DNA of 42,785 nucleotides from Candidatus Eiseniibacteriota bacterium (GTDB lineage: Bacteria; Eisenbacteria; RBG-16-71-46). The position numbers were made by a program, and so were the translations under genes. The DNA lies in assembly GCA_025360715.1 (NCBI GenBank), contig JANYBS010000035.1:1-42785 (forward strand), in the 5' to 3' direction. Shown here in pieces: positions 19,974-37,003 of the stretch. Below the pieces are notes generated by a model. The model searched no databases. It worked only from the letters and a program-made list of their open reading frames with translations, and was not told the DNA's origin. Within the stretch, counting starts at the first letter, position 1. Every line of letters begins with the position of its first letter.

Positions 19974-21461
19974 TCAAAGCGCTCCGGGCGTCCGCTCGGG
20001 CTCGTGTTCGCGTAGCCACTTCCATATGGCGCGCATCGCCCAGAGGTCGTCGGCGTTGTACTCGGCCACGGCGGCGAGCAGGCGGTCGCGCTCGGCCGAG
20101 TCGGCGCTTCGCCGCGCGTGGTGATATTGCGCGACCGACCATTCCGAGCCCGCCTCGGGATTGCGCCACTCGAAGCCCATCCACGGCGCCACGTGCTTGA
20201 CCGAATAGCTGCGAAGCGGCAACCGCACGCAGCGGTCGAGCACGCGCTTGAGGTCGAAGAGCACCGCCTTCATGCGCGCGACGAACCCATCGGGCGACCC
20301 GTAGCGGGCGTGGTAGCGGTCGATCCACAGCACTTCGTAGGTGTCCCAGTGCATCCAGCGCGCATTCGGGTGTGCGTTCAGGATCTCGCTCGCGCGTCCA
20401 ACGAAGCGCTCCCATGCCTCGCGGTCGCCGCCGGGTTCGAATGAAGCGAACAAGCTCTCCACGTGCGGCGCGTTCACGCCATCCTCGAGCGCGATGCCCC
20501 AGAGATAGATCGGGACCTCGGCGTGCAAACCACGCGAATCGCCTTCGAGGTCGAACCACACGATCGGCGGCGCGGGTAGGCGCGCCGGCTCGATCCACGC
20601 CGCCGCGCCGTCGCGCCACGCTTGCGCCGCGAGCTTCGCACGGTGCGCCGTAGCGCCGGAGAGAATGGCTTTGAGCCTTGACAGTGGCACGGCCGCAAGC
20701 TGCGTCACGTCACGCACGCCCATCGCATGCAGCTCGGGTACGTGCCGGGCCTGCACCTCGGGGATGATCTCGATGCGCCGCTGCGCGACCGCGCGCTCCC
20801 AGCAATGCGAATAATAGCTACACGTACTGCACTTGGAATGGCCGAGCAAGACATCGGGCTCTTCGAGCTTTTCGAGCGTGCTCGATGCCAGATGCAGGAT
20901 GCGCTGATACGTCTCTTCGCTCGCCGGCTGCATCACCACGGTACGGCTGTTGCCATCGACGATCTCGTAGCGGATCGGCTCGATCCCCAGGCTCTCGCGC
21001 AATATCGCGCCGTAGTGCGCCAGCTGCAACGCGAAGTCGGGCCGCGACTCGGGCCGGTGTGCGAGTTTGGCTTCGAGCACTACAAGGCCATCGCCTTCCC
21101 AATAGAGAAAATCGGGAACGCCCGAACGCAGGCCGTCGGCCGAGAGCAATGCCGGCTGATAGATCGCCTTGCGCGTGGTGCGCAGCAACTCGGCTGTGCG
21201 TTCGGCGGCAGCCGTGTGCGAATGACCGTACTGCCAGACCGGGCCTTCGATCTCGGCGAAACGCGAGGCCACGCTCTTCTCGTGCGCTTGCCCGACTTCG
21301 CGTAACACGAGATCGTGCTCGCTCGGCGCGCTCGCCTCTTCGCGCACGTGTTGGCGCAGCCACAGGCGGCGCGGGCAACCGTCCGCGTGGGTGAGCGTCT
21401 GGGCGCTCAGGCGGTACGGTCTGCGCACCTCGGCGGATCCGGGGGAATCCGAAGCGCTCAT
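19974..21461 (-). CDS. TM0106-family RecB/Cas4-like nuclease with RNase H-like C-terminal domain
   Basis: A 495-residue predicted nuclease. The N-terminal half resembles RecB/Cas4-type PD-(D/E)xK enzymes: a lone Cys in DGCPRRLWL, a metal-site pattern SGVPDFL ... VVLEAKL near residues 110-130, then a Cys cluster KCSTCSYYSHC near residue 210, as in Fe-S-containing Cas4/AddB-like folds. The C-terminal half resembles the DnaQ/RNase H-like exonuclease domain of this family: WFDLEGDSRG, HWDTYE and YNADDLWAMRAIW carry the expected acidic residues. No CRISPR array or cas gene is nearby, so a repair or RNA/DNA processing role is more likely; it is not biochemically defined. Start chosen at 21461, 25 bp after cdaA. 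Confidence 0.8.
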   Translation of the reverse strand: MSASDSPGSAEVRRPYRLSAQTLTHADGCPRRLWLRQHVREEASAPSEHDLVLREVGQAHEKSVASRFAEIEGPVWQYGHSHTAAAERTAELLRTTRKAIYQPALLSADGLRSGVPDFLYWEGDGLVVLEAKLAHRPESRPDFALQLAHYGAILRESLGIEPIRYEIVDGNSRTVVMQPASEETYQRILHLASSTLEKLEEPDVLLGHSKCSTCSYYSHCWERAVAQRRIEIIPEVQARHVPELHAMGVRDVTQLAAVPLSRLKAILSGATAHRAKLAAQAWRDGAAAWIEPARLPAPPIVWFDLEGDSRGLHAEVPIYLWGIALEDGVNAPHVESLFASFEPGGDREAWERFVGRASEILNAHPNARWMHWDTYEVLWIDRYHARYGSPDGFVARMKAVLFDLKRVLDRCVRLPLRSYSVKHVAPWMGFEWRNPEAGSEWSVAQYHHARRSADSAERDRLLAAVAEYNADDLWAMRAIWKWLREHEPERTPGAL

Positions 21462-21486
21462 GCGGCTTTCATCTCGCGGTCCGCCA

Positions 21487-22308
21487 TCAGCCGGCGGGAT
21501 GCTCTGCGCCCACATCGGGCGCGGTCGGTAGAGTCGCTGGCGGTTGTTCGTCCTGCGGGCGGATGCGGAAGATGCGCGAGAGCTCGGAGCGCAACTGGCC
21601 TTCGTCCAGACGCGGGTACAGCACGCCGCGATAGGCGACCGAGATGCTGCCGGTCTGCTCGCTCACCACGATGATCGCGGCATCGGTCTCTTCGGACAGG
21701 CCCAGCGCCGCGCGATGACGCGTGCCGAGCGCGACCGCGGTGAGCGGATTGGACGACAGCGGCAGGATGCACGAGGCCGCCACGATCGCGTCCTCGCGCA
21801 AGATGACCGCGCCGTCGTGCAGCGGTGAGCCCGGGCTGAAGAGCGTCACCAGCAATTCGGCCGAGACTTTGGAATCGATACGCGTGCCGGTCTCGACGAA
21901 ATTGCGCAGCCCGATATTACGCTCCATCACGATGAGCGCGCCGTGACGGCGCTGCGCCAGGTTCTCGACCGAGCGGATCACCTCGCCCAGGACGCCGTAG
22001 TTCTCCCCGCGTAGAAAGGAGCGGAAGTAACGCGTGCGGCCGAACTGCGCGAGCGCGTGACGTAGCTCGGGCTGGAACAGGATGACGAATACGATCAGCC
22101 ATACCGTCTTGAGCGAATCCATGATCCAGCGCACCGCGAGCAGGTCGAAATAGCGCGCGATGAAGCCCACGACCACGATCACGAGCAGCCCGACGATCAT
22201 CTGCGCCGAACGCGTGCCCTTGACCAGCGACAGCAGCCGGTAGAAGAGCGCCGCGACGAGCAGGATATCGAGCGCATCGAGCAGCCAAAGATGGTGGACG
22301 GGCATCAT
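21487..22308 (-). CDS. cdaA: membrane diadenylate cyclase (c-di-AMP synthase)
   Basis: A 273-residue enzyme that makes cyclic di-AMP from two ATP. Three N-terminal transmembrane helices (about residues 9-27, 37-52, 65-80) match CdaA/DacA. The DAC domain follows with the catalytic DGA motif at 165-167 and the RHR motif at 197-199 (GTRHRAALG). The C-terminal tail is Pro/Ala-rich. c-di-AMP controls potassium and osmolyte balance and cell-wall homeostasis. Two ATGs in tandem (22308, 22305) are possible starts, both with a weak ribosome site. Placed after folP, as in several phyla. Confidence 0.95.
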   Translation of the reverse strand: MMPVHHLWLLDALDILLVAALFYRLLSLVKGTRSAQMIVGLLVIVVVGFIARYFDLLAVRWIMDSLKTVWLIVFVILFQPELRHALAQFGRTRYFRSFLRGENYGVLGEVIRSVENLAQRRHGALIVMERNIGLRNFVETGTRIDSKVSAELLVTLFSPGSPLHDGAVILREDAIVAASCILPLSSNPLTAVALGTRHRAALGLSEETDAAIIVVSEQTGSISVAYRGVLYPRLDEGQLRSELSRIFRIRPQDEQPPATLPTAPDVGAEHPAG

Positions 22309-23698: not shown

Positions 23699-23838
23699 CC
23701 GAGTGGCCTTTCCGCGCGTCCCGATGTCGGCCGAGGTTGCCTGAAGGGCGTCCAGAGGGCTGCGCCGGTCGCGCAAATGTCGTGTCCGCTGCGGGATGCG
23801 GGGCGCATGGACGGCCGCTGAGGGCCACCACGGCTCCG

Positions 23839-23867
23839 TTGACCTGTTGGTTGGCGGATGATACCAC
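23839..23867 (+). promoter_or_regulatory. possible ompA promoter
   Basis: TTGACC (23839-23844) with TACCAC (23862-23867) after 17 bp, in the 290-bp gap between the divergent DinB-like and ompA genes. The -10 matches only three of six positions. The rest of the gap shows no other structure. Confidence 0.3.
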
Positions 23868-23988
23868 TCGTCCGTCTCGACACCTCATTTCGGGCTGTTC
23901 CCGGCCTTCACCGGGCACACGCGGGCCGCAAGAGTTCCGCTTCGCCCAAGCATCTGTACACCCGTACCGGGTTGGAGGTTCTTCTCGC

Positions 23989-25464
23989 ATGTCCTGGTGG
24001 AAGCGTTCGCTGTCCCTTGTCGCGCTGGCCGCGTTCTTCGCCGCCCCTGCGCATGCCCAGCTCGGCGGGCACCCGTACGAATTGTCGGCTGGCGCCGGCA
24101 TCAACAGCTTCGACGCACGTGACTTCATCCAGGACAGCCCCGTGTACATGGGCGCGCTCGGTTGGCGCCATTCGCCCGGCATGTCGTTCGAGCTCTCCGC
24201 GCTCGGCGCTCCGACCAAGCTCGATCGCCCAGGCGACCTCGACCACAAGTGGTCGTATGTCTCGCTCGATGCGCGCTGGAACCTGCGCGACGCCTCCGAG
24301 AAGGCGGTGCCCTACCTGATCACCGGCATGGGCTACGGCCGCGCGCAGGACCCTGTGGGTGGGCTGGTCAAGAAGGGCGCCCCCAGCATCGGCGCCGGTT
24401 TCCTCTACAGCCTCATGGGCTCGCAGCGCACGTACCTGCGGCTTCAGGTGCGCGACGTCATGTTCCGCGAGCATGCCGCGACCGAGTTCAGCCACCACAT
24501 CGCCGCGAGCGCAGGCTTGCAGTGGGCGTGGGGCGGCAAGGCCAAGGACCAGGACCTCGACGGTGTGCGCAACTGGCTCGACAAGTGCCCGAACACGCCG
24601 ATCGGCGCCAAGGTCGACGCGACCGGCTGCCCGATCGACAGTGACGGCGACGGCGTGTACGACGGCATCGACAAGTGCCCGAACACGCCCAAGGGCGCCA
24701 AGATCGACAAGTACGGCTGCCCGATCGACAGCGACGGTGACGGCGTGCCGGACGGCATCGACAAGTGCGACAACACGCCCAAGGGCGCCAAGGTCGATGC
24801 GACCGGTTGCCCGATCGATTCCGATGGCGACGGCGTCTACGACGGCTTGGACAAGTGCGAGAACACGCCCAAGGGCGCGGTGGTCGACAAGGACGGCTGC
24901 CCGGTCGATACCGACGGCGATGGTGTGCCCGATGGCTTGGACCAGTGCCCGAATACGCCTGCCGGCCTCAAGGTCGATCCCTCGGGCTGCCCGATCGAGG
25001 TGAGCGAGCGCGAGACGCAGTTGCTCGACACAGGCACGATCCGCATCCAGAACATCAACTTCGACGTGAACAAGGCCAGCATCAAGGACTCGACCAGCTT
25101 CGCGATCCTCGATGACGTGGCGAAGATCCTGCTGCAATACCCGGCGCTCACGCTCGAGATCGGTGGCCACACCGACAACAGCGGGGTGAAGGCCAAGAAC
25201 ATGACGCTGTCCGAGGCTCGCGCGAAGACGGTGCTCGGCTACCTCATGCAGAAGTACCCGACGCTCGATGCGACGCACTTCACGGTCAAGGGCTACGGAC
25301 CCACGCTGCCGATCGCGCCGAACACCTCGGTGCTCGGCAAGGCGAAGAATCGGCGCGTGGAGTTCAAGGTCACCAACACCGACGTGCTCAAGATCGAACG
25401 CGAGAAGCGCCACTTCGTGCGGAAGGGCGAAGCCGTGCCGCCGGCCGATCCGAACAAGAAGTAG
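23989..25464 (+). CDS. OmpA-family protein with thrombospondin type 3 repeats
   Basis: A 491-residue outer-membrane protein. A signal peptide (residues 1-24, ending AHAQ) precedes a beta-barrel region of about 170 residues. Then come four and two-thirds copies of a 30-residue calcium-binding repeat (DxDGDGVxDGxDKCxNTPxGAxVDxxGCPID), and a C-terminal OmpA peptidoglycan-binding domain with NFDVNKASI, GHTDNSG and LSEARAKTVLGYL. It probably links outer membrane and cell wall, with a rigid calcium-loaded stalk. Start at 23989 follows GGAGG by ten bases. Followed by a hairpin at 25484-25517. Confidence 0.93.
   Translation: MSWWKRSLSLVALAAFFAAPAHAQLGGHPYELSAGAGINSFDARDFIQDSPVYMGALGWRHSPGMSFELSALGAPTKLDRPGDLDHKWSYVSLDARWNLRDASEKAVPYLITGMGYGRAQDPVGGLVKKGAPSIGAGFLYSLMGSQRTYLRLQVRDVMFREHAATEFSHHIAASAGLQWAWGGKAKDQDLDGVRNWLDKCPNTPIGAKVDATGCPIDSDGDGVYDGIDKCPNTPKGAKIDKYGCPIDSDGDGVPDGIDKCDNTPKGAKVDATGCPIDSDGDGVYDGLDKCENTPKGAVVDKDGCPVDTDGDGVPDGLDQCPNTPAGLKVDPSGCPIEVSERETQLLDTGTIRIQNINFDVNKASIKDSTSFAILDDVAKILLQYPALTLEIGGHTDNSGVKAKNMTLSEARAKTVLGYLMQKYPTLDATHFTVKGYGPTLPIAPNTSVLGKAKNRRVEFKVTNTDVLKIEREKRHFVRKGEAVPPADPNKK
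24580..24999 (+). repeat. 90-bp tandem repeats encoding calcium-binding modules
   Basis: Repeat units start exactly every 90 bp at 24580, 24670, 24760, 24850 and 24940, the last being partial. Each encodes one thrombospondin type 3 module with Asp-rich DxDxDG loops and two Cys. The exact phasing makes copy number prone to change by slippage or recombination. Confidence 0.9.
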
Positions 25465-25902: not shown

Positions 25903-27525
25903 TCACGTCTTCTGTTTCTTCTTTTCCGCCGCCGGGAAGAGCACATTGTTGAGGATCAATCGGTAGCCCGGTGAATGCGGATACTCGTCCAGCTTGGTCT
26001 CGGGATCGCCCACCATGTGCTGATAGTCCTCGGGATCGTGCCCGCCGAGGAACGTGAAAGTCCCGCGGCCGAACTCGCCGTGGATGTACTTCACTTCGTC
26101 GGTGCCCTCGACTTCGCCCAGCACCGTGACGTTGCTCTTGAGCTTCGAGCGATGGAAGCCCGTGCTCTGGCCCAGGAACTCCGGCACAGCGTTCACATGG
26201 TCCTGCGTGAGCATGGTCGGCACGGGGTCGTTCTTGGCGCTGAAGTCGAACAAAGTGAACACCGTGTTCGGACCGCGGATGTTGGCTTCCTGAGTCACGT
26301 CGATATCCGAGAACCGGTATGCGATCGGGTCCATCTCGATGTGGAAGTTCTCGAACGCCAGGCAGCGGCTGAAGTCCAACTTGCGCTGCGCGTCCGGATC
26401 CTCGGAATCACCGTCATAGATGACATCGGCGATGTCCACGCCCTGGGCGGCGAGCGCGATGTCGTAGGTGTCGGTCGCCGAACACATGCCGAACAGGAAG
26501 CCGCCGCGGCCCACGAAGTCCTTGATCGTGACCGCGACCGCCGCCTTGAGCTGCGTGACCTTGGCGAATCCCAGTCGCGTGGCCATCGCCTTTTGCACAG
26601 CCTCTTCCTCCTGGTACCACGGGAACGTGTGGTACGCGGCCCAGAAGCGCCCGTGCTGGCCAGTGAAGTCCTCGTGGTGCAGGTGCAACCAGTCATACTT
26701 GGCGAGGTCGCCCTTGATCACCTCTTCGTCCCAGATCTTCTCGTAGGGGATCTGCGCGTACTGAAGCGCCAACGTGACGGCGTCGTCCCACGGCGGCGTG
26801 TTGGGCGGGATGTACACCGCGACCTTGGGCGCCTTCTCGAGCCCCACGATCTCCATATTCTCGTCCTGGACGGTGGCGCGGATCTGCGCTTCAGCCGCGC
26901 CGCCACAGGGCTCGATCGAGACGCCGCGGATGTTCGCTTCGCGTTCCGTGGCCGGATCGTCGGGCAACAAGAAAGAGCCACCGCGATAGTTCAGGAGCCA
27001 CTCGGCCTTGGTGCCGTGGCCCAACACCCAGTAGGTGAGGCCATAGGCCTTGAGATGGTTCGCCTGATGGTCGTCCATGGGCACCAGGATCTTGGCGTGC
27101 GCGATCGTCGCGCTCGCGGCGAGCAATCCCAGCGCCAACGCGGCCGCCAGCGGCAGCATCTCGACGACCTCGGCGTAGGAATGCTTGTCGGCGCTGACCG
27201 AGGGCGCGGGGCCGGCGTGTGTCGTAGCGTCGGCCGGGTCCGCGTCCGCGACGCGCGCGGTCTCCACGCGCACGTCGGCTGCGGCGTGGCCGGTGGCCAC
27301 ATCATCGGGCGTCGTCGTCACGCCGCCAAAGCGAAACACTTTGACCTGCTTGCGCGCACCGGGCATGAACAACATCGCCACGCCGAGCGTGATCAGCGCG
27401 AGCGCGGCCATGACCACCACCCCGGCCACGGCGACCACGCCGCCGAGCACCGCGCCGACCGGGCCGAGCGGGCCCGAGGGCCTGCTCGCGCGTCCGAGAC
27501 CACCGCCATTCAGTGAGACACGCAT
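25903..27525 (-). CDS. membrane protein with amidotransferase-like core, function unknown
   Basis: A 540-residue protein of a family often mislabelled 'asparagine synthetase B' in Gemmatimonadota-like genomes; no asparagine synthetase motif is visible. Residues 21-54 form a long hydrophobic segment, then a charged linker, and residues 122-144 look like an internal signal peptide ending AHA before KILVPMDD. The rest includes PWDDAVTLALQYAQIPYEKIWDE and WLHLHHEDFTG, and a nucleophile-elbow-like GGFLFGMCSAT with Cys348, suggesting a class I glutamine amidotransferase-like (Rossmann) fold. The ATG at 27525 has AAGGA upstream; an internal ATG at 27159 with GAGG before it would give a conventional secreted form. 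Last gene of the DUF4159-DUF4175-TPR cluster. Confidence 0.72.
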   Translation of the reverse strand: MRVSLNGGGLGRASRPSGPLGPVGAVLGGVVAVAGVVVMAALALITLGVAMLFMPGARKQVKVFRFGGVTTTPDDVATGHAAADVRVETARVADADPADATTHAGPAPSVSADKHSYAEVVEMLPLAAALALGLLAASATIAHAKILVPMDDHQANHLKAYGLTYWVLGHGTKAEWLLNYRGGSFLLPDDPATEREANIRGVSIEPCGGAAEAQIRATVQDENMEIVGLEKAPKVAVYIPPNTPPWDDAVTLALQYAQIPYEKIWDEEVIKGDLAKYDWLHLHHEDFTGQHGRFWAAYHTFPWYQEEEAVQKAMATRLGFAKVTQLKAAVAVTIKDFVGRGGFLFGMCSATDTYDIALAAQGVDIADVIYDGDSEDPDAQRKLDFSRCLAFENFHIEMDPIAYRFSDIDVTQEANIRGPNTVFTLFDFSAKNDPVPTMLTQDHVNAVPEFLGQSTGFHRSKLKSNVTVLGEVEGTDEVKYIHGEFGRGTFTFLGGHDPEDYQHMVGDPETKLDEYPHSPGYRLILNNVLFPAAEKKKQKT

Positions 27526-27556
27526 CAGAGATCCTTCCGGGGAGCCATGCGGGACA

Positions 27557-29293
27557 CTACAACCGGAGTTCGCGGCGCAACCGCTCGACATGCCGGCGCA
27601 CTTCGGGCGCATTCCACGCGCGCGGGAAGCGCGCTAGGCATTCTTCGAACGCGGCCAGCGCCTGCTTGGGCTGCTGGAGCTGCAGATACGCTTCGCCGGT
27701 GCGCTGGCGCGCCACGGGCGCGAGGCGATCATCGGGAAGCGAGTCGTTCACCATCGCGAGCGGGATCAGCGCGGCCTTCCAGTCGCGCGCGTCGGCGCGC
27801 AGGTCGGCCAACTGCATCGCGATCGTCGCCGCGTAGTGCGAGCGCACGGGCGTGGCGCGGAAAAGCGAGTCGGCCACGCGAGTGGCCGACGCCGTGTCAC
27901 CCCGCCAGCGCTGCCACGCCAGTGTGGCGATGCCGCGCAGCTCCGGGGCGCCGGGCTGTTCTTCGAGCAAGTAGGTGCGTTCGAGCGCTGCGCCGGCATC
28001 GGGCGTTTCGGGATCCGCGGCGATGCGCTGATACGCGGCGAGCGCCGAATCGAAGTGCGCCGCGAAGAACTGCGCCTCGGCGAACGCGAATCGCGCGGGC
28101 GGCCAGCGTTGCGAGAGCGAGTCCAGCACGCCGAGCGCCCGCTCGGGCGGGCCCTCGCGCAGGCGGCCGAGCGCGGCCTCCTGCAACAGCTCGGGGCTGC
28201 GCGCGGCGGTCACGCCCAGCGCATCGATCAGGTGCCGTGCCTGGGCGGCGTGGCCGCTGGTGCGCAGCTCGCGCGCGAGTGCCAACGCCAGGTCCGGCGG
28301 GAAGTGCCCGGGCGGCAGGTCGCGCAAGGCCTGCTCCAGCGCGAGCGCGAGTGCCGAGCGCGCCGCCGCGTCGCTCGAGCCAGCGAAGCCCCACGCGCGT
28401 CGCGCGCTGGTGATGCGCGTGGGTTCCTCGAAGCGCGCATCGCCGGCCAGGCTCGCGAGCGCGGCGATGGCGGCGATGGAGTCCCGCGTCGCGCCCGTCG
28501 ACATGCACACCTCGGCGAAGAGCTGGCGCAGCGCAGGGCGCTGGTCGCGCGAGTCCGCGGATTCGAGCACGTGCACGGCCTCGGCGGGCTCGCCGGCGCG
28601 CGCGTACAGATGCGCGAGGCCGCGCGCCAGGTCGGTGCGTCGCGGATTCGCGAGCACGGCCGCGCGCAGCGCCTCGCGCGGCACGCGCGGATCCGGAAGC
28701 GCGGCGCGGCGAAGTGCCTGCATCGCCCAGTCGCCCATGGACGGCGCGGCGATCCACGTCTCGATCGCGGCCACCGACGCATCGCGCGCGCGCCCCAGAC
28801 GCTCGTAGGCGATCACATATTCATTGCTGCTCAGCAACGAGTCGCGCTGGATGCCGCGCTCACTGCGCAACAGCTCGGCCAGCGGCTGCCACGCCTCGCG
28901 CATCGCGTAGTCGCGCGCCATCTCGGCGATCACGTAGGGATGATGCGGCACCGCGCGTTGCAGCACGGCCAACGTGTCGAGCGCGCGCTCGGGCAGGCCG
29001 GAGTTGCGCAGGTCGGAGGCGTGGCGTAACTGCAGCGCCTGTGCCGGCTCCAGCGGCGGCACCGCGCGACGCGGCCGCACCCCCTCGAGCGTCTGCGCCG
29101 AGGAGAAGAACAGTGGCAGGTCGGCCTCGTTCACGCGCGTGCCGGGGATGAACCCTGGCAGCACCGTGCCCGTCTGGATCGGCGGATTCTCGGGTAGCTT
29201 GCGCGCTTGGGCGCGCGCGCGCGCCGGCGTGATCGCCGCCGCCAGCGCCAACAGCAGCATGGACGCACGCAGCGCGAGACCGCGCGGCATCAT
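27557..29293 (-). CDS. exported TPR-like repeat protein
   Basis: A 578-residue protein with a signal peptide (about residues 1-29, ending ARAQ) and Ala/Arg/Leu-rich helical repeats of tetratricopeptide type along most of its length, clearest at the C-terminus (RTGEAYLQLQQPKQALAAF). No catalytic motif. It is probably a periplasmic scaffold. Its ATG overlaps the stop of the DUF4175 gene by four bases (ATGA), so production is coupled to that protein; the amidotransferase-like gene follows 31 bp later. Confidence 0.78.
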   Translation of the reverse strand: MMPRGLALRASMLLLALAAAITPARARAQARKLPENPPIQTGTVLPGFIPGTRVNEADLPLFFSSAQTLEGVRPRRAVPPLEPAQALQLRHASDLRNSGLPERALDTLAVLQRAVPHHPYVIAEMARDYAMREAWQPLAELLRSERGIQRDSLLSSNEYVIAYERLGRARDASVAAIETWIAAPSMGDWAMQALRRAALPDPRVPREALRAAVLANPRRTDLARGLAHLYARAGEPAEAVHVLESADSRDQRPALRQLFAEVCMSTGATRDSIAAIAALASLAGDARFEEPTRITSARRAWGFAGSSDAAARSALALALEQALRDLPPGHFPPDLALALARELRTSGHAAQARHLIDALGVTAARSPELLQEAALGRLREGPPERALGVLDSLSQRWPPARFAFAEAQFFAAHFDSALAAYQRIAADPETPDAGAALERTYLLEEQPGAPELRGIATLAWQRWRGDTASATRVADSLFRATPVRSHYAATIAMQLADLRADARDWKAALIPLAMVNDSLPDDRLAPVARQRTGEAYLQLQQPKQALAAFEECLARFPRAWNAPEVRRHVERLRRELRL

Positions 29294-32200
29294 CGTGGGC
29301 TCCCGCCCAGCGCCTTGAGGTAGCGCTCGATCAGCGCGCGGTACTGCGCGGGGTAGCGATCGGCGGCAGCCTTGAGCAGGTCGAGCTTGAGCTTATCGGT
29401 GCTACGCAGCAGATCGGCCGAGAGCGGCGCCGGCGAGGCGTGCGCGATGTCCTGCGCCTGCTGGGCCTCGCGTTGCGGATCGAAGTCGCGACGGTTGACC
29501 GAGCGCTGGGCGTCGAGCATGCGCGAGAGGATGCGGTCCTGCTTGGACGTGAGCTCACCACTCATTTCACTCTGGCCAAGCTGTTCCTCCACATCCTTCA
29601 TCTCTTTTCGCGCTTGCTCCAAGCGGCCGAGCAGCGAGGGGCTCTTCTGTTCCTCGCGCTGGACTTGTTCCAACTGCTCACGGATGCGCTGCTGCTGGTC
29701 GGCCAGGCGGCGCATCTCGGCGCGGTCTCCGGCGCTGATGCGCAGCTGCTGCGAGAGTTTTTGTGCCAGTTCGCGCGTCTCGCGGTTGACCTGCGATTGC
29801 TGTTTGCCCATCTGGCCCATCTTCTGCGCGCCGCTCTTGCCGCTCTGGCCCTGGCCCGGCTTGTTGCACATGCTGGCTTCGGTCTCGCGCAGCGCATTGA
29901 CGGCGGCGTTCAGCTGAGCCGCCGCGCCCTGGCCGGACTGCTGGCCGCGCCCGCGGTTGCCCTGTGCCATCTCGCGGCCCGACTGCTGCAGGCCGTTCAT
30001 CGCTTTGCCCAGCGCCTGCGACACCTTGGGACTCATGAAAGGGGTCTGCTGCGAAAGCGCTGCGAGCGAATCCGCCACGCGCGCCACGCCGTCGGCGAGA
30101 TCCGTCTGGCGGTCCGCCTGCTCCTGGCCCGCCTTGGGATCCTGCGCGCTCTGCTGCGCCTGACGGCTGAGCGACACCAGATCCTGCGCCGAACGCCGCA
30201 CGGCGGCCAGATTCTGCGAGTCCTTCTGGCTCTGGTTCTGCTGGCTGCTGCGGCTCATCTGCTGCGCGGCCTGCTGCAGAGACTGGCTCGCCTGCTGGCC
30301 GGACTTGCTCGCTTCTTCGTTCTGGTCCTCCTCGCTCTGCTGCGCCGCCGCCTGCTGAGCGGGCTGCGCCTGCTGATCGAGCTTCTTGGCGGCGTCCTGC
30401 AGGTCCTTCTTGGCTTGTTCGTCCTCGGCGTCCTTGGCGGCGTCTTCGGCGTCCTTCGCCAGCTCCTGCGTCTTCTGTGCCAACTGGCGCTGCTCCTCGG
30501 CGCGCTTGGACTTCGCATCCTGCGAGTTCGAGGCGCTGGGGTCCTGCGGCGGCTGCGAGGGATCCGAAGGCTTGGAGGACGCGTTGGGCTTGGCTTGCTT
30601 GCCCTGCTTGCTCGGATCGTTGGGCTTGGCCTGCGACTTCGCGGCGTCCTCGTGCTTCTGGTTGAGCGCGTCCTGCTGCTGCTTGAGCTCATCGGCGCGC
30701 TGCGAGAGCGCGTCCATCTTCTCGTCCTGGCGCAGCTGCTTGAGCAGCGCGAGGCTACGTTCGAGGTTCTTGAGCAGATCCTTATTCTCTTCCGAGAGCT
30801 TCGGCAGGGCCTGTTCCATCTCGCGCTTGTCCATCTGCTTGAGCGCGTCTTGCATGCGCTTGAGCGCGTCCTTGAACTCCTGCGACTGGATCTTCTGGAG
30901 GAGCTCGCTCATCTCCTTGAGCTTCTGCTGCAGCTCTTCCCGGAACGCCTGGCGCTCGGCGGCGTCGCTGACGTGATCTTTCATCTGCTGCGCCGCGGCA
31001 TCGATCTGTTTCGAGAGGTCGTTCTGGCGCTCGAGCGTCTTGCGCATCTCCTCCGCGCGCTCGAATTGCTGCGAGGGTTGCGTGCTCTTTTGTTGCGGCT
31101 GCTGGCGCTGCAACTGTTCCAGGCTCTTCTGGACTTCTTTGGTCTGCTGCGCGACTTTCTCGAGGCTCTTGGTGACCGTCTCCTGCTTCTCGTCGAGCTT
31201 GTCGTACAGGTCGGCAAGACTCGGGAACCTCAGGTGGAACTCGGAGCTGGTCGCGCGATTCGGGCCGCCATTGGCGTCGTTGTCGCGGACTTCGAAGCGG
31301 AACGTGCCCGTCTCGCCGGGCAGCAGCGCGAGCGACGCAGCGTCCCACGCCGCCGTGACGCGCGCCTCGCGCGGGTTACCCGCAAAGCCCGCCAGCGGCA
31401 CGTTGCGCCAAGGCTGCGCGGCATCCTTGCGGTACTGAAGTTGCAATGCGCCCAGGCCCAGATCGTCCTGCACCAGCACATCGTAGGGCACCGCCTGGCC
31501 GGCGGGCACGTCTTGGTCGCCCGACGGCAGCGCGACGGTGATGACCGGTGGCGCATCGGGCAGCGCGCTGATGCGGTAGTGGAACACGCCTGCGCCATTC
31601 ACGCTCGTGGCGCGCAGTGCGTAAGGCGCATCGGCATCGATCGAAAGGTCGCCGCGCCAGCGCCGCGGCGTGATGGCGCTCCATGTGCTGCGCGAGCCGC
31701 CTTCGATCTGCGCTTCCAGACTCTCGAGGTCGCGATCGAAAGTGACCTCGACATGCGCACGCGAGCCCGCGAGCGCCGCAAGGTCGCCCGAGGTGGCCGC
31801 GCCCGTCTGCTCGGGCAGCCGCGCATAGGCCGGCGCGTGATACGTGACGTTGAAGCTCACGGGCTGCGGCTCGCCCGCCAGGCCGATGTGGTATCGCGGA
31901 CTGCGCGTGCGTTGCACGTTCACCGCATAGTCGCGCGCGCGCGTCACCGGTGGCAGGTCGAAGCGCCACAGGCGCACGCCGCCGCTCTCGCGCTCGAGCT
32001 GGGGGGCGGGCGCCGCGCCATCGCCCAGCAGCTGCGGCGCGGCCGAGGATCCGCTCACGCGCGCACGCACGGCGAGCGTGGCGCCCGGCGAGATCGTCAC
32101 GTTGCCCGGCTCGACCGTGAGCGCCACCGGCGGCGCCGCGGCGCCCGGATCCAGCAGCGTGTGCCACGAGCGCAGCGCCGCCTGGGGCAGCGTGAGCGCC

Positions 32201-32709
32201 AGCACCAGCACCACCGCGAGCGCGCCGCCGATACGCGCGAACGCCGCAGGTGCTTCCCGCTTGGGCCGCGCAGCCTCGATGCGCACTGCCGCGAGCTTCT
32301 GGGCCGCTTCCGCGCGGATCGCACCAGCGAGTTCGGCGGAAGTGTGCGAGTGGGTCTCGGGCGCCTGGCTGCGCTCGAGTTCGAGCGCATTGCGCAGCCA
32401 CGAGCGTAGCTCGGGGAAGTGCAGCTCGAGTCGTTCGAGCCACGCATCCCACGCCGGCATCGCCCGACCGAAGTCGCGCACCGCCAACGCCAGCGCCGCG
32501 AACACGACGAGCGTGAGCAGCACGAGCCGCGCCCACGCCGTGGCGGGCGTCGCGGGCAGCAGGATGCCGATGGCGATGGCGGCCGCGGTGGCCATGGCGG
32601 CGATCGCCGCCGCGCGCAACGCGTGACGCGCGATGAGCGCGCGGCGCACCGCGCCATGCTGACGCTGGAGTTGGGATCGAAGCAGAGTCTCGGGCGCGCT
32701 TGGAGTCAT
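29290..32709 (-). CDS. DUF4175 family membrane protein with long Gln-rich coiled coil
   Basis: A 1139-residue protein. Two hydrophobic helices near residues 28-72 and a third near 162-180 anchor it. Residues about 190-510 are beta-rich, Ig-like segments, probably periplasmic. From about 515 to the end it is dominated by Gln/Lys/Glu/Asp/Ala coiled-coil sequence with low-complexity stretches. This matches DUF4175, seen in envelope-related operons with DUF4159 and TPR proteins in several diderm phyla; molecular function is unknown. The open frame is intact. ATG at 32709 follows the DUF4159 stop by 22 bp; ribosome site weak. The Gln-rich region explains the large open frame on the opposite strand, which is not a gene. 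Confidence 0.85.
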   Translation of the reverse strand: MTPSAPETLLRSQLQRQHGAVRRALIARHALRAAAIAAMATAAAIAIGILLPATPATAWARLVLLTLVVFAALALAVRDFGRAMPAWDAWLERLELHFPELRSWLRNALELERSQAPETHSHTSAELAGAIRAEAAQKLAAVRIEAARPKREAPAAFARIGGALAVVLVLALTLPQAALRSWHTLLDPGAAAPPVALTVEPGNVTISPGATLAVRARVSGSSAAPQLLGDGAAPAPQLERESGGVRLWRFDLPPVTRARDYAVNVQRTRSPRYHIGLAGEPQPVSFNVTYHAPAYARLPEQTGAATSGDLAALAGSRAHVEVTFDRDLESLEAQIEGGSRSTWSAITPRRWRGDLSIDADAPYALRATSVNGAGVFHYRISALPDAPPVITVALPSGDQDVPAGQAVPYDVLVQDDLGLGALQLQYRKDAAQPWRNVPLAGFAGNPREARVTAAWDAASLALLPGETGTFRFEVRDNDANGGPNRATSSEFHLRFPSLADLYDKLDEKQETVTKSLEKVAQQTKEVQKSLEQLQRQQPQQKSTQPSQQFERAEEMRKTLERQNDLSKQIDAAAQQMKDHVSDAAERQAFREELQQKLKEMSELLQKIQSQEFKDALKRMQDALKQMDKREMEQALPKLSEENKDLLKNLERSLALLKQLRQDEKMDALSQRADELKQQQDALNQKHEDAAKSQAKPNDPSKQGKQAKPNASSKPSDPSQPPQDPSASNSQDAKSKRAEEQRQLAQKTQELAKDAEDAAKDAEDEQAKKDLQDAAKKLDQQAQPAQQAAAQQSEEDQNEEASKSGQQASQSLQQAAQQMSRSSQQNQSQKDSQNLAAVRRSAQDLVSLSRQAQQSAQDPKAGQEQADRQTDLADGVARVADSLAALSQQTPFMSPKVSQALGKAMNGLQQSGREMAQGNRGRGQQSGQGAAAQLNAAVNALRETEASMCNKPGQGQSGKSGAQKMGQMGKQQSQVNRETRELAQKLSQQLRISAGDRAEMRRLADQQQRIREQLEQVQREEQKSPSLLGRLEQARKEMKDVEEQLGQSEMSGELTSKQDRILSRMLDAQRSVNRRDFDPQREAQQAQDIAHASPAPLSADLLRSTDKLKLDLLKAAADRYPAQYRALIERYLKALGGSPR

Positions 32710-32731
32710 GTCTGGTGGATGCCCGGCCGGG

Positions 32732-33439
32732 TCAATGCGTGAGAGCGTGATGGACGATGTTCATGGCCATCTTGAGCGCCGCTTCGTGCTTCTCGGGTGG
32801 ATCGTGATGAATGGATTCGTCTTCGAGTCCGTCACCGATGTCGCAATCGAATGAGAAGAACACACAGAGTCTGCCATCGCGGACGATCCCGAATGCACGC
32901 GCCGGGCCGCCGTCGTGTTCGTGGATCTTGGGCAGGCCCGCCGGGAAGTCGTAAAGCTCGTGGAAGATGGAATGAGCGTAGGGCAACTCCACCAGTTCGG
33001 CGTCAGGGAACAGTGCTTTCATCTCGCGGCGGAACGAGGGCGCGATGCCATAGTCATCGTCCACCCAGAGGAAGCCGCCGGAATCCAGCCACTGGCGCAG
33101 GTTCACCCGCTCAGCGTCGGTGAACTTGATGTTCCCGTGACCGGCCGCGAACACGAACGGGTACTGGAAGAGGGCCGCCGACCCCGGCTGGACCACGGCC
33201 GCGTCGTCCGAGGCGACCGGAATGGTGGTCCGGGCCTTGAGTGCCGCGAGCAGGTTGCGCAGCGAGGTGGTGTCGCCATACCAGTCGCCGCCGCCGCCGT
33301 ATTTGAGCCGGGCGATGCCGAACGTGCGCGCTCCGGGCGGCGTGGTCTCGGCCGCGCCCGCGGGCGCGGCGGCGCCCAAGAGGAGCGTCAGGGCAAGGGC
33401 CAGAGAACAGGCCAAGGTCTGCGAGGCGAGCGGGCGCAT
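32732..33439 (-). CDS. DUF4159 domain protein, exported
   Basis: A 235-residue protein with signal peptide (about residues 1-29, ending AGAAE) and a DUF4159 domain (FGIARLKYGGGGDWYGD ... NLLAALKARTTIPV ... LFQYPFVFAAGHGNIKFTD, then LRQWLDSGGFLWVDDDYG and LPYAHSIFHELYDFPAGLPKIHEHDG). The domain has a flavodoxin/amidotransferase-like fold in family models; no catalytic Cys is seen. Elsewhere it accompanies MoxR, DUF58 and VWA (Bat-like) genes, which are absent here. The ATG at 33439 lies only 18 bp after a strong terminator hairpin of the preceding gene, with TACACT at 33451-33446 as a possible -10; start could be leaderless. Confidence 0.85.
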   Translation of the reverse strand: MRPLASQTLACSLALALTLLLGAAAPAGAAETTPPGARTFGIARLKYGGGGDWYGDTTSLRNLLAALKARTTIPVASDDAAVVQPGSAALFQYPFVFAAGHGNIKFTDAERVNLRQWLDSGGFLWVDDDYGIAPSFRREMKALFPDAELVELPYAHSIFHELYDFPAGLPKIHEHDGGPARAFGIVRDGRLCVFFSFDCDIGDGLEDESIHHDPPEKHEAALKMAMNIVHHALTH

Positions 33440-33518: not shown

Positions 33519-34505
33519 TTACGGCTTCGCAGGAACGATCGCGACGTGACCCACCGCTGACAGCGTATAGGTGCCGTCCGTGAACGTGCCCGAGGCGCTG
33601 GGCAGGCGGAGCGTGTCACCCGGCATATAGGCGATCAGGCCGCCATTGGCGTCGACGGCCGAGACACGGACCAGGTACGTCTGGCCCATCAGGGTCGTAC
33701 GGCGCGTCAGGACGAGCGCGCCCGGGGCGCCGAGCTTGTATGAGACGACCGGACCCGCGGCGTTGGGCACGTAGCCGAGGAAGATGTCGCGCACCTTGTC
33801 GTTGAAGACCGGCGAGGGCGAGCCACCCCTGAGCTTGGCATCCGAGGTGATCGAGCTCGTGTACTGGTAGACGTGCACCCAGTAGCCCGCAGCCTCCGGC
33901 ACCTGCGACCACGCCATGGTAAAGAGTGAATCCGGCGGGTCCTTACGGATCGCCCACACGATCGAGCCGGCCGGCGAGCCCGTGACCTGGGCCAGGTTCG
34001 AGAGCGGCGATGTCGTCGTGGCCGTTCCGCCGACCAGGCCGCGGCCGACATACGTGGACGGCGAGTAGCTGGACGGCGAGGGGTCGTCGAGCGGGTAGAG
34101 TTCCCACTGCGACTCGGTCCACTTGCGCGGCGAGGTGAGCACGTGATCGAGGCGGTTGCGGAAGCCACCGTTCGCGTCGCGCGAGAACATCTGGTAGCCC
34201 GAAGCGGCGGTGCCATCGAACAGCTGCAGGCGCAGGCTGCCCGGCGTGGTGACGTCGATCTGCTGCTGGCCGACGTAGATGCGTTCGGATACGTCACCGA
34301 AAGCCGTGTCGCGATAGGTGAACACGGTGACCGGCGTCGCGCGCCAGCCGATCAGGCGGGAGTTCGCGTTCGGCGTACCCTCGACCTGCGTGTAGCCGGA
34401 GTCCGCGCTGGTGACCCGCTTGGAGCAGCCGGCGGTCACCGCCGCGGCAGCGACGAGCGCCAGGAGCGCCGTCGCCACGCGGGAGTTGAAGAAGGATCGC
34501 TTCAT
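33519..34505 (-). CDS. lipoprotein of unknown function
   Basis: A 328-residue protein with a lipoprotein signal: basic MKRSFFNSR, hydrophobic stretch, lipobox VTAGC near residue 27. The mature part is rich in Thr, Ser, Gly and aromatic residues, with a fibronectin-type-III-like segment (PEAAGYWVHVYQY ... TYLVRVSAVDANGG), suggesting beta-sandwich folding. No enzymatic motif. It follows secF by 13 bp and is followed by a terminator, so it is co-transcribed with secDF, an unusual partner. GAAAGG precedes the ATG. Confidence 0.75.
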   Translation of the reverse strand: MKRSFFNSRVATALLALVAAAAVTAGCSKRVTSADSGYTQVEGTPNANSRLIGWRATPVTVFTYRDTAFGDVSERIYVGQQQIDVTTPGSLRLQLFDGTAASGYQMFSRDANGGFRNRLDHVLTSPRKWTESQWELYPLDDPSPSSYSPSTYVGRGLVGGTATTTSPLSNLAQVTGSPAGSIVWAIRKDPPDSLFTMAWSQVPEAAGYWVHVYQYTSSITSDAKLRGGSPSPVFNDKVRDIFLGYVPNAAGPVVSYKLGAPGALVLTRRTTLMGQTYLVRVSAVDANGGLIAYMPGDTLRLPSASGTFTDGTYTLSAVGHVAIVPAKP

Positions 34506-34518
34506 CGTCTGCCTTTCG

Positions 34519-35430
34519 TCATTCCGCCGGGATGCCCTTGCGGCGATCCAGCGAGATCCAGATGTCGAGCGCCATGGCGCTGGCGACGTACACGGACGAG
34601 TAGGTTCCGAACACGGTGCCGACCAGCATCGCGAACGAGAAGTCGCGCAGGACCTCGCCGCCCCAGATGAAGAGAGCGAGGGCGGTAAGGAACACCGTGA
34701 AGGCGGTGATGACCGTACGCGAGAGCGTCTCGTTGACCGCGATGTCCATCACTCGCGAGTGGGTCTCCTTGCGGAGAGCCTTGTTGCGCTCGCGGATGCG
34801 GTCGAACACCACGATGGTGTCGTTGATCGAGTAGCCGGCGATGGTGAGTAGTGCGGCGATGACCGTGAGGGTGATCTCCCGCCCGGTGAAGCAGAGGAAC
34901 CCCAAGGTCACGATCACGTCGTGGAGCAGTGCCACGACGCCGCCGAGTGCGTATTTGAACTCATAACGCCAGCCCACGTAAAGCAGGATGATTCCCAGGC
35001 TGGATAGGATGGCCATGATGGCCTTATGCCGCAGGTCACCGCCGACCTTCGAGCCGACGGTCGACATGCCGCGGAGTTCGACCTTCGTGCCGCTCAACCG
35101 GCCTTCGATGGCCGCCTGGGCGCGCGGGAAGACGTCCTTGGAGGAGTCCTGCGTACGGATCAGGAACTCGTCCTTGGAGATCCCGGTCATCTGCTGGATC
35201 TCGGCGCCCTTGAAGCCGCCGCTATCGAGCGCTGAGCGCACCGCATCGGCCTGCTGGGCCGGCGCCGTGCGGATCTGGAGCAACGTGCCGCCGGTGAAGT
35301 CGACGCCGAGCTTGGGGCCCTTGGTGAACAGGAACGCCAGTGTCACCAGGATGATCGCGCCCGAGAAGAAGTACGCGATCCGCCGGTACTTCATGAAGGG
35401 GATGTTCGTCGCGTGAAGGATCTGCAACAT
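34519..35430 (-). CDS. secF: protein translocase subunit SecF
   Basis: A 303-residue inner-membrane protein that, with SecD, uses the proton gradient to help pull proteins across the membrane. It shows the N-terminal helix, the family segment LGVDFTGGTLLQI, a periplasmic domain, then a cluster of five helices with the conserved GYSINDTIVVFDRIRE segment and the SRTVITAFTVFLTALALFIWGG region. The ATG at 35430 follows GGAGAGG; a longer frame reaches into secD and lacks similarity. It starts 19 bp after the secD stop. Confidence 0.95.
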   Translation of the reverse strand: MLQILHATNIPFMKYRRIAYFFSGAIILVTLAFLFTKGPKLGVDFTGGTLLQIRTAPAQQADAVRSALDSGGFKGAEIQQMTGISKDEFLIRTQDSSKDVFPRAQAAIEGRLSGTKVELRGMSTVGSKVGGDLRHKAIMAILSSLGIILLYVGWRYEFKYALGGVVALLHDVIVTLGFLCFTGREITLTVIAALLTIAGYSINDTIVVFDRIRERNKALRKETHSRVMDIAVNETLSRTVITAFTVFLTALALFIWGGEVLRDFSFAMLVGTVFGTYSSVYVASAMALDIWISLDRRKGIPAE

Positions 35431-35449
35431 GGGTGGCCTCTCCGTCCGC

Positions 35450-37003
35450 TCAGATGCTGAGCCGCTCGACCTTGCCGCGGCTGAGCCAGTAGTCATAGAT
35501 CATGCGCGTGAAAAGCACCGCGGTGAACAGGTTGGCCACAAGACCGATGATCAGCGTCACCGCGAATCCCTTGATCGGGCCGGTTCCGAACTGGAACAGG
35601 AACAGACCGCTGATGATCTGTGTGGAGTGGGCGTCGAAGATGGTGCGGAACGCGCGGTCATAGCCGAGTTCCACCGCCTGACGCACCGTGCGGCCATTGC
35701 GGAGCTCTTCTCGGATGCGCTCGAAGATCAGCACGTTGGTGTCGACCGCCATACCGACCGTGAGGACGAGACCGGCGATACCCGGCAGCGTCAGGGTCGC
35801 GTGTACGCCTGCGAGCATCGCCACGACATAGATCGTGTTGAGCAGCATGGCGATGATGGCGATCAGGCCCGACAGCTGGTAATAGACGACCATGAAGCCG
35901 ACGACCATCGCGGTGCCGATCAGGCCCGCCATGACGCCGTCCTTGATGGAGTCACTGCCAAGCGACGGTCCGACCGTGCTCTCGTAGAGGATCTTGACCG
36001 GTGCGGGCAGGGCGCCGGCGCGCAGCACGATCGCCAGGTCCTTGGCCTCGTTCAGGTCGATGCTGCCGCCTGTGATCGAAGCGTCGCCGTTGGGGATCGA
36101 GCCGCGGATGAACGGCGCCGACTGCACGACGCCGTCGAGGACGATGGCGAGCTGCCGCCCCACGTTGGCGCCGGTGACGCGCGCGAAGTCCGCGCGGCCC
36201 TTGGGCGTCATCTTCATGGAGACGCCCCACGCCGCGGGGTTCGTCTGGTCCAGGCCCGAGAGCGCATCGGCGCTGGCGACCGAGCCACCCGTCATCTCGG
36301 GTTCCTTCTTGAGCACGTACAGGATGCGGCCCGTGATGCCCTGGCTGCTCACGTCGCCACTGCTCCACGTGAGCTGCGTGTCGCCCGGGATGATCGAGTC
36401 GATGCCCGGTGTGGCCAGCAGCTTCTGGACCGCGCCCATATCGTCCTTGCGCACGAAGCCCGCATCGAGCATGTGGCCGGTGAGCGGGGCCTTCTTGAAC
36501 GTGGTGTCGGCGCCGCCCGCACCCTTGGACGCCAGGTACAGGTCGAGTTTGTCGAAGGTGGCTTTGGTGTCCTCGTTGCTGCGCACCAACTTGAACTCGA
36601 GGAGCGCCGTCTTGCCGATCAGCTCGATCGCGCGCTGGCGATCGGTGAGTCCGGGCATCTGGATCGCGATGCGATCCTCGCCCTCGCGCTGGATGAGCGG
36701 TTCGGCGACGCCGAATTGGTCGACGCGATTGCGGATGATCTCCATCGCGCGTTCGGTCGCGTCCTTGGCTTCAGCGGCATTCAGCTTGGACTTGTCGACT
36801 TCGAGGAGCAGCTGCAGGCCGCCCTGAAGGTCGAGGCCGAGGTGGATGGCCTGCTTTCGCAGTGTGGTCAGGTCCGCAGGCGCCATCGCATCGCGCTGGG
36901 CCGGCGTCATCGAGTAGAAGCGGTAGGACGGGAAGAGGTACCAGCCGGCGAGCAGCGTCACCACCAGTACACCCACCAGTTTCCACTGGTCGGAGCGAGA
37001 CAT
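35450..37003 (-). CDS. secD: protein translocase subunit SecD
   Basis: A 517-residue partner of SecF. Features: N-terminal helix (VGVLVVTLLAGWYLF), the HLGLDLQGGLQLLLEV motif, a large periplasmic P1 domain, and the C-terminal helix bundle with GLVLTVGMAVDTNVLIFERIREE and the SGLFLFQFGTGPIKGFAVTLIIG region. The ATG at 37003 is preceded by GGGGG about seven bases upstream; codons up to 37066 overlap the promoter region and are excluded. No yajC is visible upstream. The operon secD-secF-lipoprotein is driven by the promoter at 37079-37108. Confidence 0.96.
   Translation of the reverse strand: MSRSDQWKLVGVLVVTLLAGWYLFPSYRFYSMTPAQRDAMAPADLTTLRKQAIHLGLDLQGGLQLLLEVDKSKLNAAEAKDATERAMEIIRNRVDQFGVAEPLIQREGEDRIAIQMPGLTDRQRAIELIGKTALLEFKLVRSNEDTKATFDKLDLYLASKGAGGADTTFKKAPLTGHMLDAGFVRKDDMGAVQKLLATPGIDSIIPGDTQLTWSSGDVSSQGITGRILYVLKKEPEMTGGSVASADALSGLDQTNPAAWGVSMKMTPKGRADFARVTGANVGRQLAIVLDGVVQSAPFIRGSIPNGDASITGGSIDLNEAKDLAIVLRAGALPAPVKILYESTVGPSLGSDSIKDGVMAGLIGTAMVVGFMVVYYQLSGLIAIIAMLLNTIYVVAMLAGVHATLTLPGIAGLVLTVGMAVDTNVLIFERIREELRNGRTVRQAVELGYDRAFRTIFDAHSTQIISGLFLFQFGTGPIKGFAVTLIIGLVANLFTAVLFTRMIYDYWLSRGKVERLSI

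What the first reader, a model, noticed from the sequence alone, without database searches (positions are those of the whole stretch)
25903..33439. Envelope cluster DUF4159-DUF4175-TPR-amidotransferase-like protein: possible undescribed system
Four tightly packed genes encode only exported or membrane proteins. The first and the last both have amidotransferase/flavodoxin-like cores, flanking a giant coiled-coil protein and a TPR scaffold. The MoxR/DUF58/VWA partners that often accompany DUF4159 and DUF4175 are absent here. A periplasmic assembly or envelope-stress machine is a reasonable guess; nothing here is characterised.
Basis: inference. Interest (0 to 1): 0.62.

Follow-up and report, generated by a model that had tools for sequence, protein, structure and literature searches.

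The report
Conserved MoxR-less bacterial envelope gene module
Four neighbouring genes for exported proteins of unknown function turn out to be an ancient set that many bacterial phyla keep, and lose, together, so they probably work as one machine in the cell envelope; one of the four belongs to a strongly conserved family absent from the protein-family libraries searched here.

Summary
The window is a Candidatus Eisenbacteria contig. A minus-strand run secD-secF-lipoprotein-DUF4159-DUF4175-TPR-G4 encodes exported or membrane proteins. DUF4159 and G4 both fold as class I amidotransferase-like domains (AlphaFold2 pLDDT about 86). G4 has no Pfam, NCBIfam or PDB sequence match, yet is 57-62% identical across FCB phyla, with an invariant Cys at the nucleophile-elbow position.

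G4 lies 4.2-5.7 kb from DUF4159 on the same strand in all 24 Eisenbacteria genomes that have both on one contig, and the block recurs in KSB1 and an unnamed lineage. In Bacteroidota G4 is unlinked, but the three genes share one distribution: 108 of 148 genomes have all three, 40 lack the set (one of these has only divergent copies of the DUF pair). On a ClpX tree this needs at least five joint losses.

MoxR/DUF58/VWA are absent because this is a separate DUF4159 subclass; MoxR-linked DUF4159/DUF4175 are paralogues found in the same KSB1 genomes. The host has its MoxR/Bat loci on other contigs.

Best reading: a MoxR-independent periplasmic assembly whose G4 subunit may be a Cys-dependent hydrolase or transferase. 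Module well supported; chemistry inferred.

The parts
32732..33439 (-). Class A DUF4159 protein, 235 aa, signal peptide plus amidotransferase-like fold; invariant GHG and K-x-HEH motifs, Asp-Asp at the nucleophile-elbow position
   Evidence: PF13709 E 5.5e-60; model pLDDT 86.6, best PDB match 4i66 then gamma-glutamyl hydrolase; motif table
29290..32709 (-). DUF4175-like protein, 1139 aa: three N-terminal TM segments, P/G-richer stretch about 190-490, long Q-rich helix-prone region about 490-1139
   Evidence: 10 of 14 aligned members hit PF13779; hydropathy; composition
27557..29293 (-). Exported TPR protein, 578 aa; overlaps the DUF4175 stop by 4 bp
   Evidence: TPR Pfam models; conserved position
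25903..27525 (-). G4: family without Pfam/NCBIfam model, amidotransferase-like fold; N-terminal TM extension in this clade, core from about 27099; invariant C226, H374, E377 (numbering from an ATG at 27159)
   Evidence: no Pfam/NCBIfam/PDB sequence match; 40-sequence alignment A1; model pLDDT 86.3; Foldseek 2gk3 E 1.4e-6; start
33519..34505 (-). Lipoprotein-like gene between secF and DUF4159, conserved in related Eisenbacteria; no Pfam family
34519..35496 (-). secF, upstream in the same run
   Evidence: PF02355 E 9e-63; conserved upstream in Eisenbacteria and Zixibacteria-type L113-L115
35450..37066 (-). secD, upstream in the same run
   Evidence: SecD P1 domains

Best explanation
The four genes encode one periplasmic assembly that does not use a MoxR ATPase. 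DUF4175 is anchored in the inner membrane by three TM segments and reaches into the periplasm with a beta-rich stretch and long helical arms; the exported TPR protein docks on it as a scaffold; class A DUF4159 and G4 are the two functional subunits, both with amidotransferase-like folds. G4 is most likely a Cys-His-Glu hydrolase or acyl/amide transferase acting on an envelope component (a peptide, isopeptide or lipoprotein), with DUF4159 as partner or ligand-binding subunit through its conserved Lys/His cluster. Shown: gene order, export signals, folds, invariant residues, linkage, joint distribution and joint loss. Inferred: physical complex, catalysis, substrate, any coupling to SecDF. I put the shared-module claim at about 0.85 and the specific Cys-enzyme mechanism at about 0.25.
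For: Linkage: all 24 Eisenbacteria genomes with both genes on one contig have them 4.2-5.7 kb apart on the same strand, with DUF4175 and TPR between them in the loci read; also KSB1 L015/L016/L042 and unnamed L018/L027/L049/L055. Co-distribution: of 148 Bacteroidota genomes, G4 in 108, DUF4159 in 109, DUF4175 in 109, sets identical except G154, which has only divergent DUF hits. Loss: at least 5 changes forced by well-supported branches of a ClpX tree, one clade rejected, p-AU 3.6e-30. In 32 G4-bearing genomes of several FCB phyla, 29 have DUF4159 and 30 have DUF4175. Folds. Cys226 between strand 221-225 and helix 227-237, with invariant H374-D-P-E377 after strand 366-371. DUF4159 class A-only invariants K171, H173, H175.
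Against: G4 is never adjacent to the pair in the Bacteroidota sampled. Two genomes, G052 and G056, have G4 but neither DUF protein, perhaps because the adjacent pair fell in one assembly gap. Five independent losses cannot reach p 0.05 by sign test (0.0625), and the tree rests on one gene. G4 Foldseek TM-scores are low (0.36), so the match is to the superfamily only. Triad geometry was not measured. Nothing tests a physical complex.
Confidence: 0.6

Rival explanations
1. G4 and DUF4159 are catalytically dead amidotransferase-fold proteins that bind a ligand (sugar or peptide), and the assembly is a structural or sensing scaffold, not an enzyme.
For: DUF4159 lacks the nucleophile Cys, with Asp-Asp at that position; top folds for G4 include trimerisation domains of GH42 enzymes and a levan utilisome chain; ThuA-like proteins match DUF4159.
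Against: G4 keeps an invariant Cys at the elbow and an invariant H-D-P-E after the next strand across 40 diverse sequences; class A DUF4159 keeps a dense His/Lys/Asp set.
Confidence: 0.35
2. It is a split MoxR/Bat system: the MoxR-DUF58-BatA/VWA genes on contig C22 work in trans with this DUF4159/DUF4175 pair.
For: The genome has a MoxR-DUF58-BatA/VWA locus without its own DUF4159; KSB1 has DUF4159-MoxR-DUF58-VWA-DUF4175 in one locus (L119).
Against: KSB1 genomes carry MoxR loci with their own class B copies and a separate class A cluster without MoxR; MoxR was found beside class A DUF4159 in none of the class A loci read.
Confidence: 0.12
3. The four genes are separate conserved envelope housekeeping genes that sit together by chance in some phyla and share a distribution only because all were lost in a few reduced or host-adapted lineages.
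For: G4 stands alone near housekeeping genes in Bacteroidota; the largest absent clade (25 of the 35 sampled) is one lineage, so losses are few.
Against: Order is kept in several phyla; the three distributions are identical in 147 of 148 genomes; losing genomes include large, nearly single-contig ones such as G080, G111 and G173 of 3.9-5.1 Mb.
Confidence: 0.12

Closest known systems
MoxR-DUF58-BatA/VWA (Bat aerotolerance-type) loci with DUF4159 and DUF4175
   Same: Share the DUF4159 and DUF4175 protein families; in KSB1 L119 all are in one locus.
   Different: No MoxR, DUF58 or VWA here; DUF4159 is a different subclass with GHG/K-x-HEH motifs that the MoxR-linked copies do not keep; G4 and TPR are added.
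Hoch_4089 (PDB 4i66), solved relative of DUF4159
   Same: Same fold, 27% identity, TM 0.70.
   Different: Lacks the GHG and K-x-HEH motifs of class A in the alignment.
Class I glutamine amidotransferase-like superfamily (gamma-glutamyl hydrolase, ThuA-like, 2gk3/3soz proteins)
   Same: Overall fold of both end genes; G4 has Cys at the elbow position and an H-x-x-E after the next strand.
   Different: No detectable sequence match to any solved member for G4; predicted exported; substrate unknown.
AdvA, Acinetobacter baumannii DUF4175 protein (PMC7481262)
   Same: Annotated with the DUF4175 name; cell-division/envelope protein.
   Different: A DUF4175 domain and two TM helices in a division protein; no evidence that it belongs to this module.

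Membership tests
DUF4159 (PF13709) | Score above the curated cut-off | tested here: met
   202.8 bits against 25.9
DUF4175 (PF13779) | Score above the curated cut-off | tested here: inconclusive
   Window protein no hit; 10 of 14 aligned members hit, best 1.5e-45
MoxR/Bat-type system | MoxR AAA+ ATPase gene in the locus | tested here: not met
   Own-genome copies lie on C151 and C22, not here; none beside class A DUF4159 in the relatives read
MoxR/Bat-type system | DUF58 and BatA/VWA genes in the locus | tested here: not met
   Found only on other contigs
Class I glutamine amidotransferase-like fold | Fold | tested here: met
   Foldseek: G4 to 2gk3 E 1.4e-6, prob 1.00 but TM only 0.36; DUF4159 to 4i66 E 9.6e-14, then gamma-glutamyl hydrolase
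Class I glutamine amidotransferase (active enzyme) | Cys nucleophile between strand and helix, with His and Glu | tested here: inconclusive
   G4: positions and invariance fit, distances not measured; DUF4159: Cys absent
Class I glutamine amidotransferase (active enzyme) | Glutaminase or amide hydrolysis activity | not testable with these tools
   Needs an enzyme assay

The most novel reading that the evidence does not exclude
G4 founds a new family of exported Cys-dependent amidotransferase-fold enzymes that, with class A DUF4159, DUF4175 and a TPR protein, forms an undescribed envelope-modifying machine ancestral to the FCB superphylum and lost as a unit several times.
Probability: 0.3. Interest if true: 0.75.

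Novelty: new variant of a known kind. Interest (0 to 1): 0.56.

Why it matters
It joins a strongly conserved family without a curated model to two domain families of unknown function, gives a clean set of genomes with and without the whole set, and separates these genes from the MoxR/Bat systems with which DUF4159 and DUF4175 are usually grouped. Culturable Bacteroidota (for example Mucilaginibacter and Daejeonella records) carry G4, and the DUF pair was found in the two such genomes searched, so the role of DUF4159 and DUF4175 becomes directly testable.

Tried and rejected
Sequence-level homology between G4 and DUF4159 was tested by profile comparison and not found beyond a 16-column stretch at 13% probability. 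Plasmid carriage of G4: no match. Literature on DUF4159, Hoch_4089 or a periplasmic 'asparagine synthetase B' (the name I recalled from memory for the Bacteroidota G4 relatives, not checked): no functional paper found. A conserved third partner near DUF4159 in Bacteroidota: only RNA-methyltransferase-like and other housekeeping-type neighbours. The HNH and aspartyl-protease-like small genes inside the KSB1 cluster are not conserved in the other loci examined. The first ClpX tree had two erratic long rows; rebuilt without them with the same result.

Full report
What is there. The window is one contig (G000:C177) of a Candidatus Eisenbacteria genome; the closest named relatives of its genes are Ca. 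Eisenbacteria records. From secF to G4 the gaps run from a 4-bp overlap to 79 bp. A convergent OmpA/thrombospondin-repeat gene (ORF 23737-25464, + strand) closes the run. Each of the four named proteins has a signal peptide or TM segment by hydropathy.

Names. DUF4159 is secure (PF13709, E 5.5e-60). G4 has no match in Pfam, NCBIfam or among solved structures by sequence, also with a 40-sequence profile against the PDB.

G4 in detail. A scan of genome contigs gave 332 stretches encoding relatives; the best 80 are 76-84% identical in Eisenbacteria and 57-62% in records of Ignavibacteria, KSB1, Zixibacteria, Cloacimonadota, Bacteroidota and WOR-3. Ninety columns are invariant in 40 diverse sequences, among them C226, H374, D375, P376, E377, H159, H161, H162 and D156. 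The AlphaFold2 model (pLDDT 86.3) places C226 between strand 221-225 and helix 227-237 and H374-E377 after strand 366-371, the layout of a class I amidotransferase elbow (family knowledge); Foldseek finds that superfamily (2gk3, E 1.4e-6, but TM-score 0.36). In many close Eisenbacteria relatives the gene carries an in-frame N-terminal extension with an extra TM segment and a conserved SYAEVVE stretch before what is elsewhere the signal peptide; the start at 27525 has a GGAAGG ribosome site.

DUF4159 in detail. The model (pLDDT 86.6) matches the solved DUF4159 relative Hoch_4089 (4i66, TM 0.70, 27% identity) and then, weakly, gamma-glutamyl hydrolase and ThuA-like proteins. It has Asp-Asp where amidotransferases carry Cys.

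Linkage. In the 47 Eisenbacteria genomes held, 41 have DUF4159 and 42 have G4; 38 have both, 24 of them on one contig, and in all 24 the two lie 4.2-5.7 kb apart on the same strand (counted). The other 14 are on different contigs of fragmented assemblies and say nothing either way. Loci read in full show DUF4175 and TPR in between. The same order is found in KSB1 (L015, L016, L042, with extra small genes) and in an unnamed lineage (L018, L027, L049, L055). Zixibacteria-type and WOR-3 loci keep DUF4159-DUF4175-TPR without G4 beside it; in seven of the former a TMEM260-like O-mannosyltransferase gene follows. In Bacteroidota DUF4159 and DUF4175 are directly adjacent in about 38 of 108 genomes (my count) and G4 is elsewhere.

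Co-distribution. In 148 Bacteroidota genomes drawn evenly, G4 is in 108, DUF4159 in 109 and DUF4175 in 109; the sets are identical but for G154, whose DUF4159 and DUF4175 hits are weak, divergent and near each other. To see whether the 40 absences are one event, I built a ClpX tree of 74 rows including 35 of the absent genomes: at least five changes are forced by well-supported branches, none of 200 bootstrap trees has a single change, and holding the absent genomes together is rejected with p-AU 3.6e-30. Five independent pairs all agree, but five cannot pass a sign test (p 0.0625). Of 32 further genomes chosen because they carry G4, 29 have DUF4159 and 30 have DUF4175; two (G052, G056) have neither.

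Why no MoxR. DUF4159 falls into two classes. Class A, the window's kind, is the one linked to DUF4175-TPR-(G4), and in no locus read does it lie beside MoxR. Class B lies with MoxR, and with DUF58 and BatA/VWA where the contig allows, in KSB1 and one Bacteroidota genome (L116, L117, L119, L123; L119 also with a DUF4175). The KSB1 genomes hold both classes. Class A keeps K171, H173 and H175 and a GHG motif in 17 of 17 sequences; class B does not keep them. The Eisenbacteria genome has a Bat operon on C151 and a MoxR-DUF58-BatA/VWA locus on C22.

How it may work. DUF4175 has three N-terminal TM segments, so its beta-rich and long helix-prone parts should face the periplasm (inference). With an exported TPR protein and two exported amidotransferase-fold proteins, a membrane-tethered periplasmic assembly is the simplest reading. 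G4's invariant Cys-His-Glu set suggests a hydrolase or transferase on an envelope peptide, isopeptide or lipoprotein; the SecDF neighbours would fit a role close to protein export, but are not always present. The complex, the chemistry and the substrate are inference. A non-catalytic binding role is the main rival.

Known or new. Each DUF is a listed domain of unknown function; the open literature searched has no paper naming DUF4159 and only an Acinetobacter division protein for DUF4175. The module is best filed as a new, MoxR-independent variant of DUF4159/DUF4175 systems, with one family, G4, that the curated libraries searched do not hold.

Noticed in passing
L105, L107, L109, L111, L112, L114, L115 (e.g. 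L105:15790-18564): In seven Zixibacteria-type loci a TMEM260-like protein O-mannosyltransferase gene (PF11028) lies just downstream of the TPR gene, hinting at a link with envelope glycosylation.
   Followed up: partly
L119, L123 (KSB1): Two DUF4159 copies in tandem beside MoxR in genomes that also have the class A cluster; in L119 the locus also holds DUF58, VWA and a DUF4175 of its own.
   Followed up: partly
L088 (G000:C151) and L089 (G000:C22): The host genome has two MoxR loci: a Bat operon, and a MoxR-DUF58-BatA/VWA locus whose VWA protein has a weak DUF4350 match in its C-terminal half.
   Followed up: partly
window 21487-22308 (-): CdaA-type diadenylate cyclase gene (c-di-AMP synthesis), next to a PD-(D/E)XK plus RNase H-like nuclease gene at 19974-21515.
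   Followed up: no
window 23737-25464 (+): OmpA-family protein with five thrombospondin type 3 repeats, convergent to the cluster and conserved there in close relatives.
   Followed up: no
G005 and G041: Two Eisenbacteria genomes over 90% complete miss DUF4159 (G005) or G4 (G041); other absences are in genomes under 90% complete. Real loss was not shown.
   Followed up: no
L014, L028: In Ignavibacteria-like genomes G4 follows a TPR gene and clpX, without the DUF pair beside it.
   Followed up: partly
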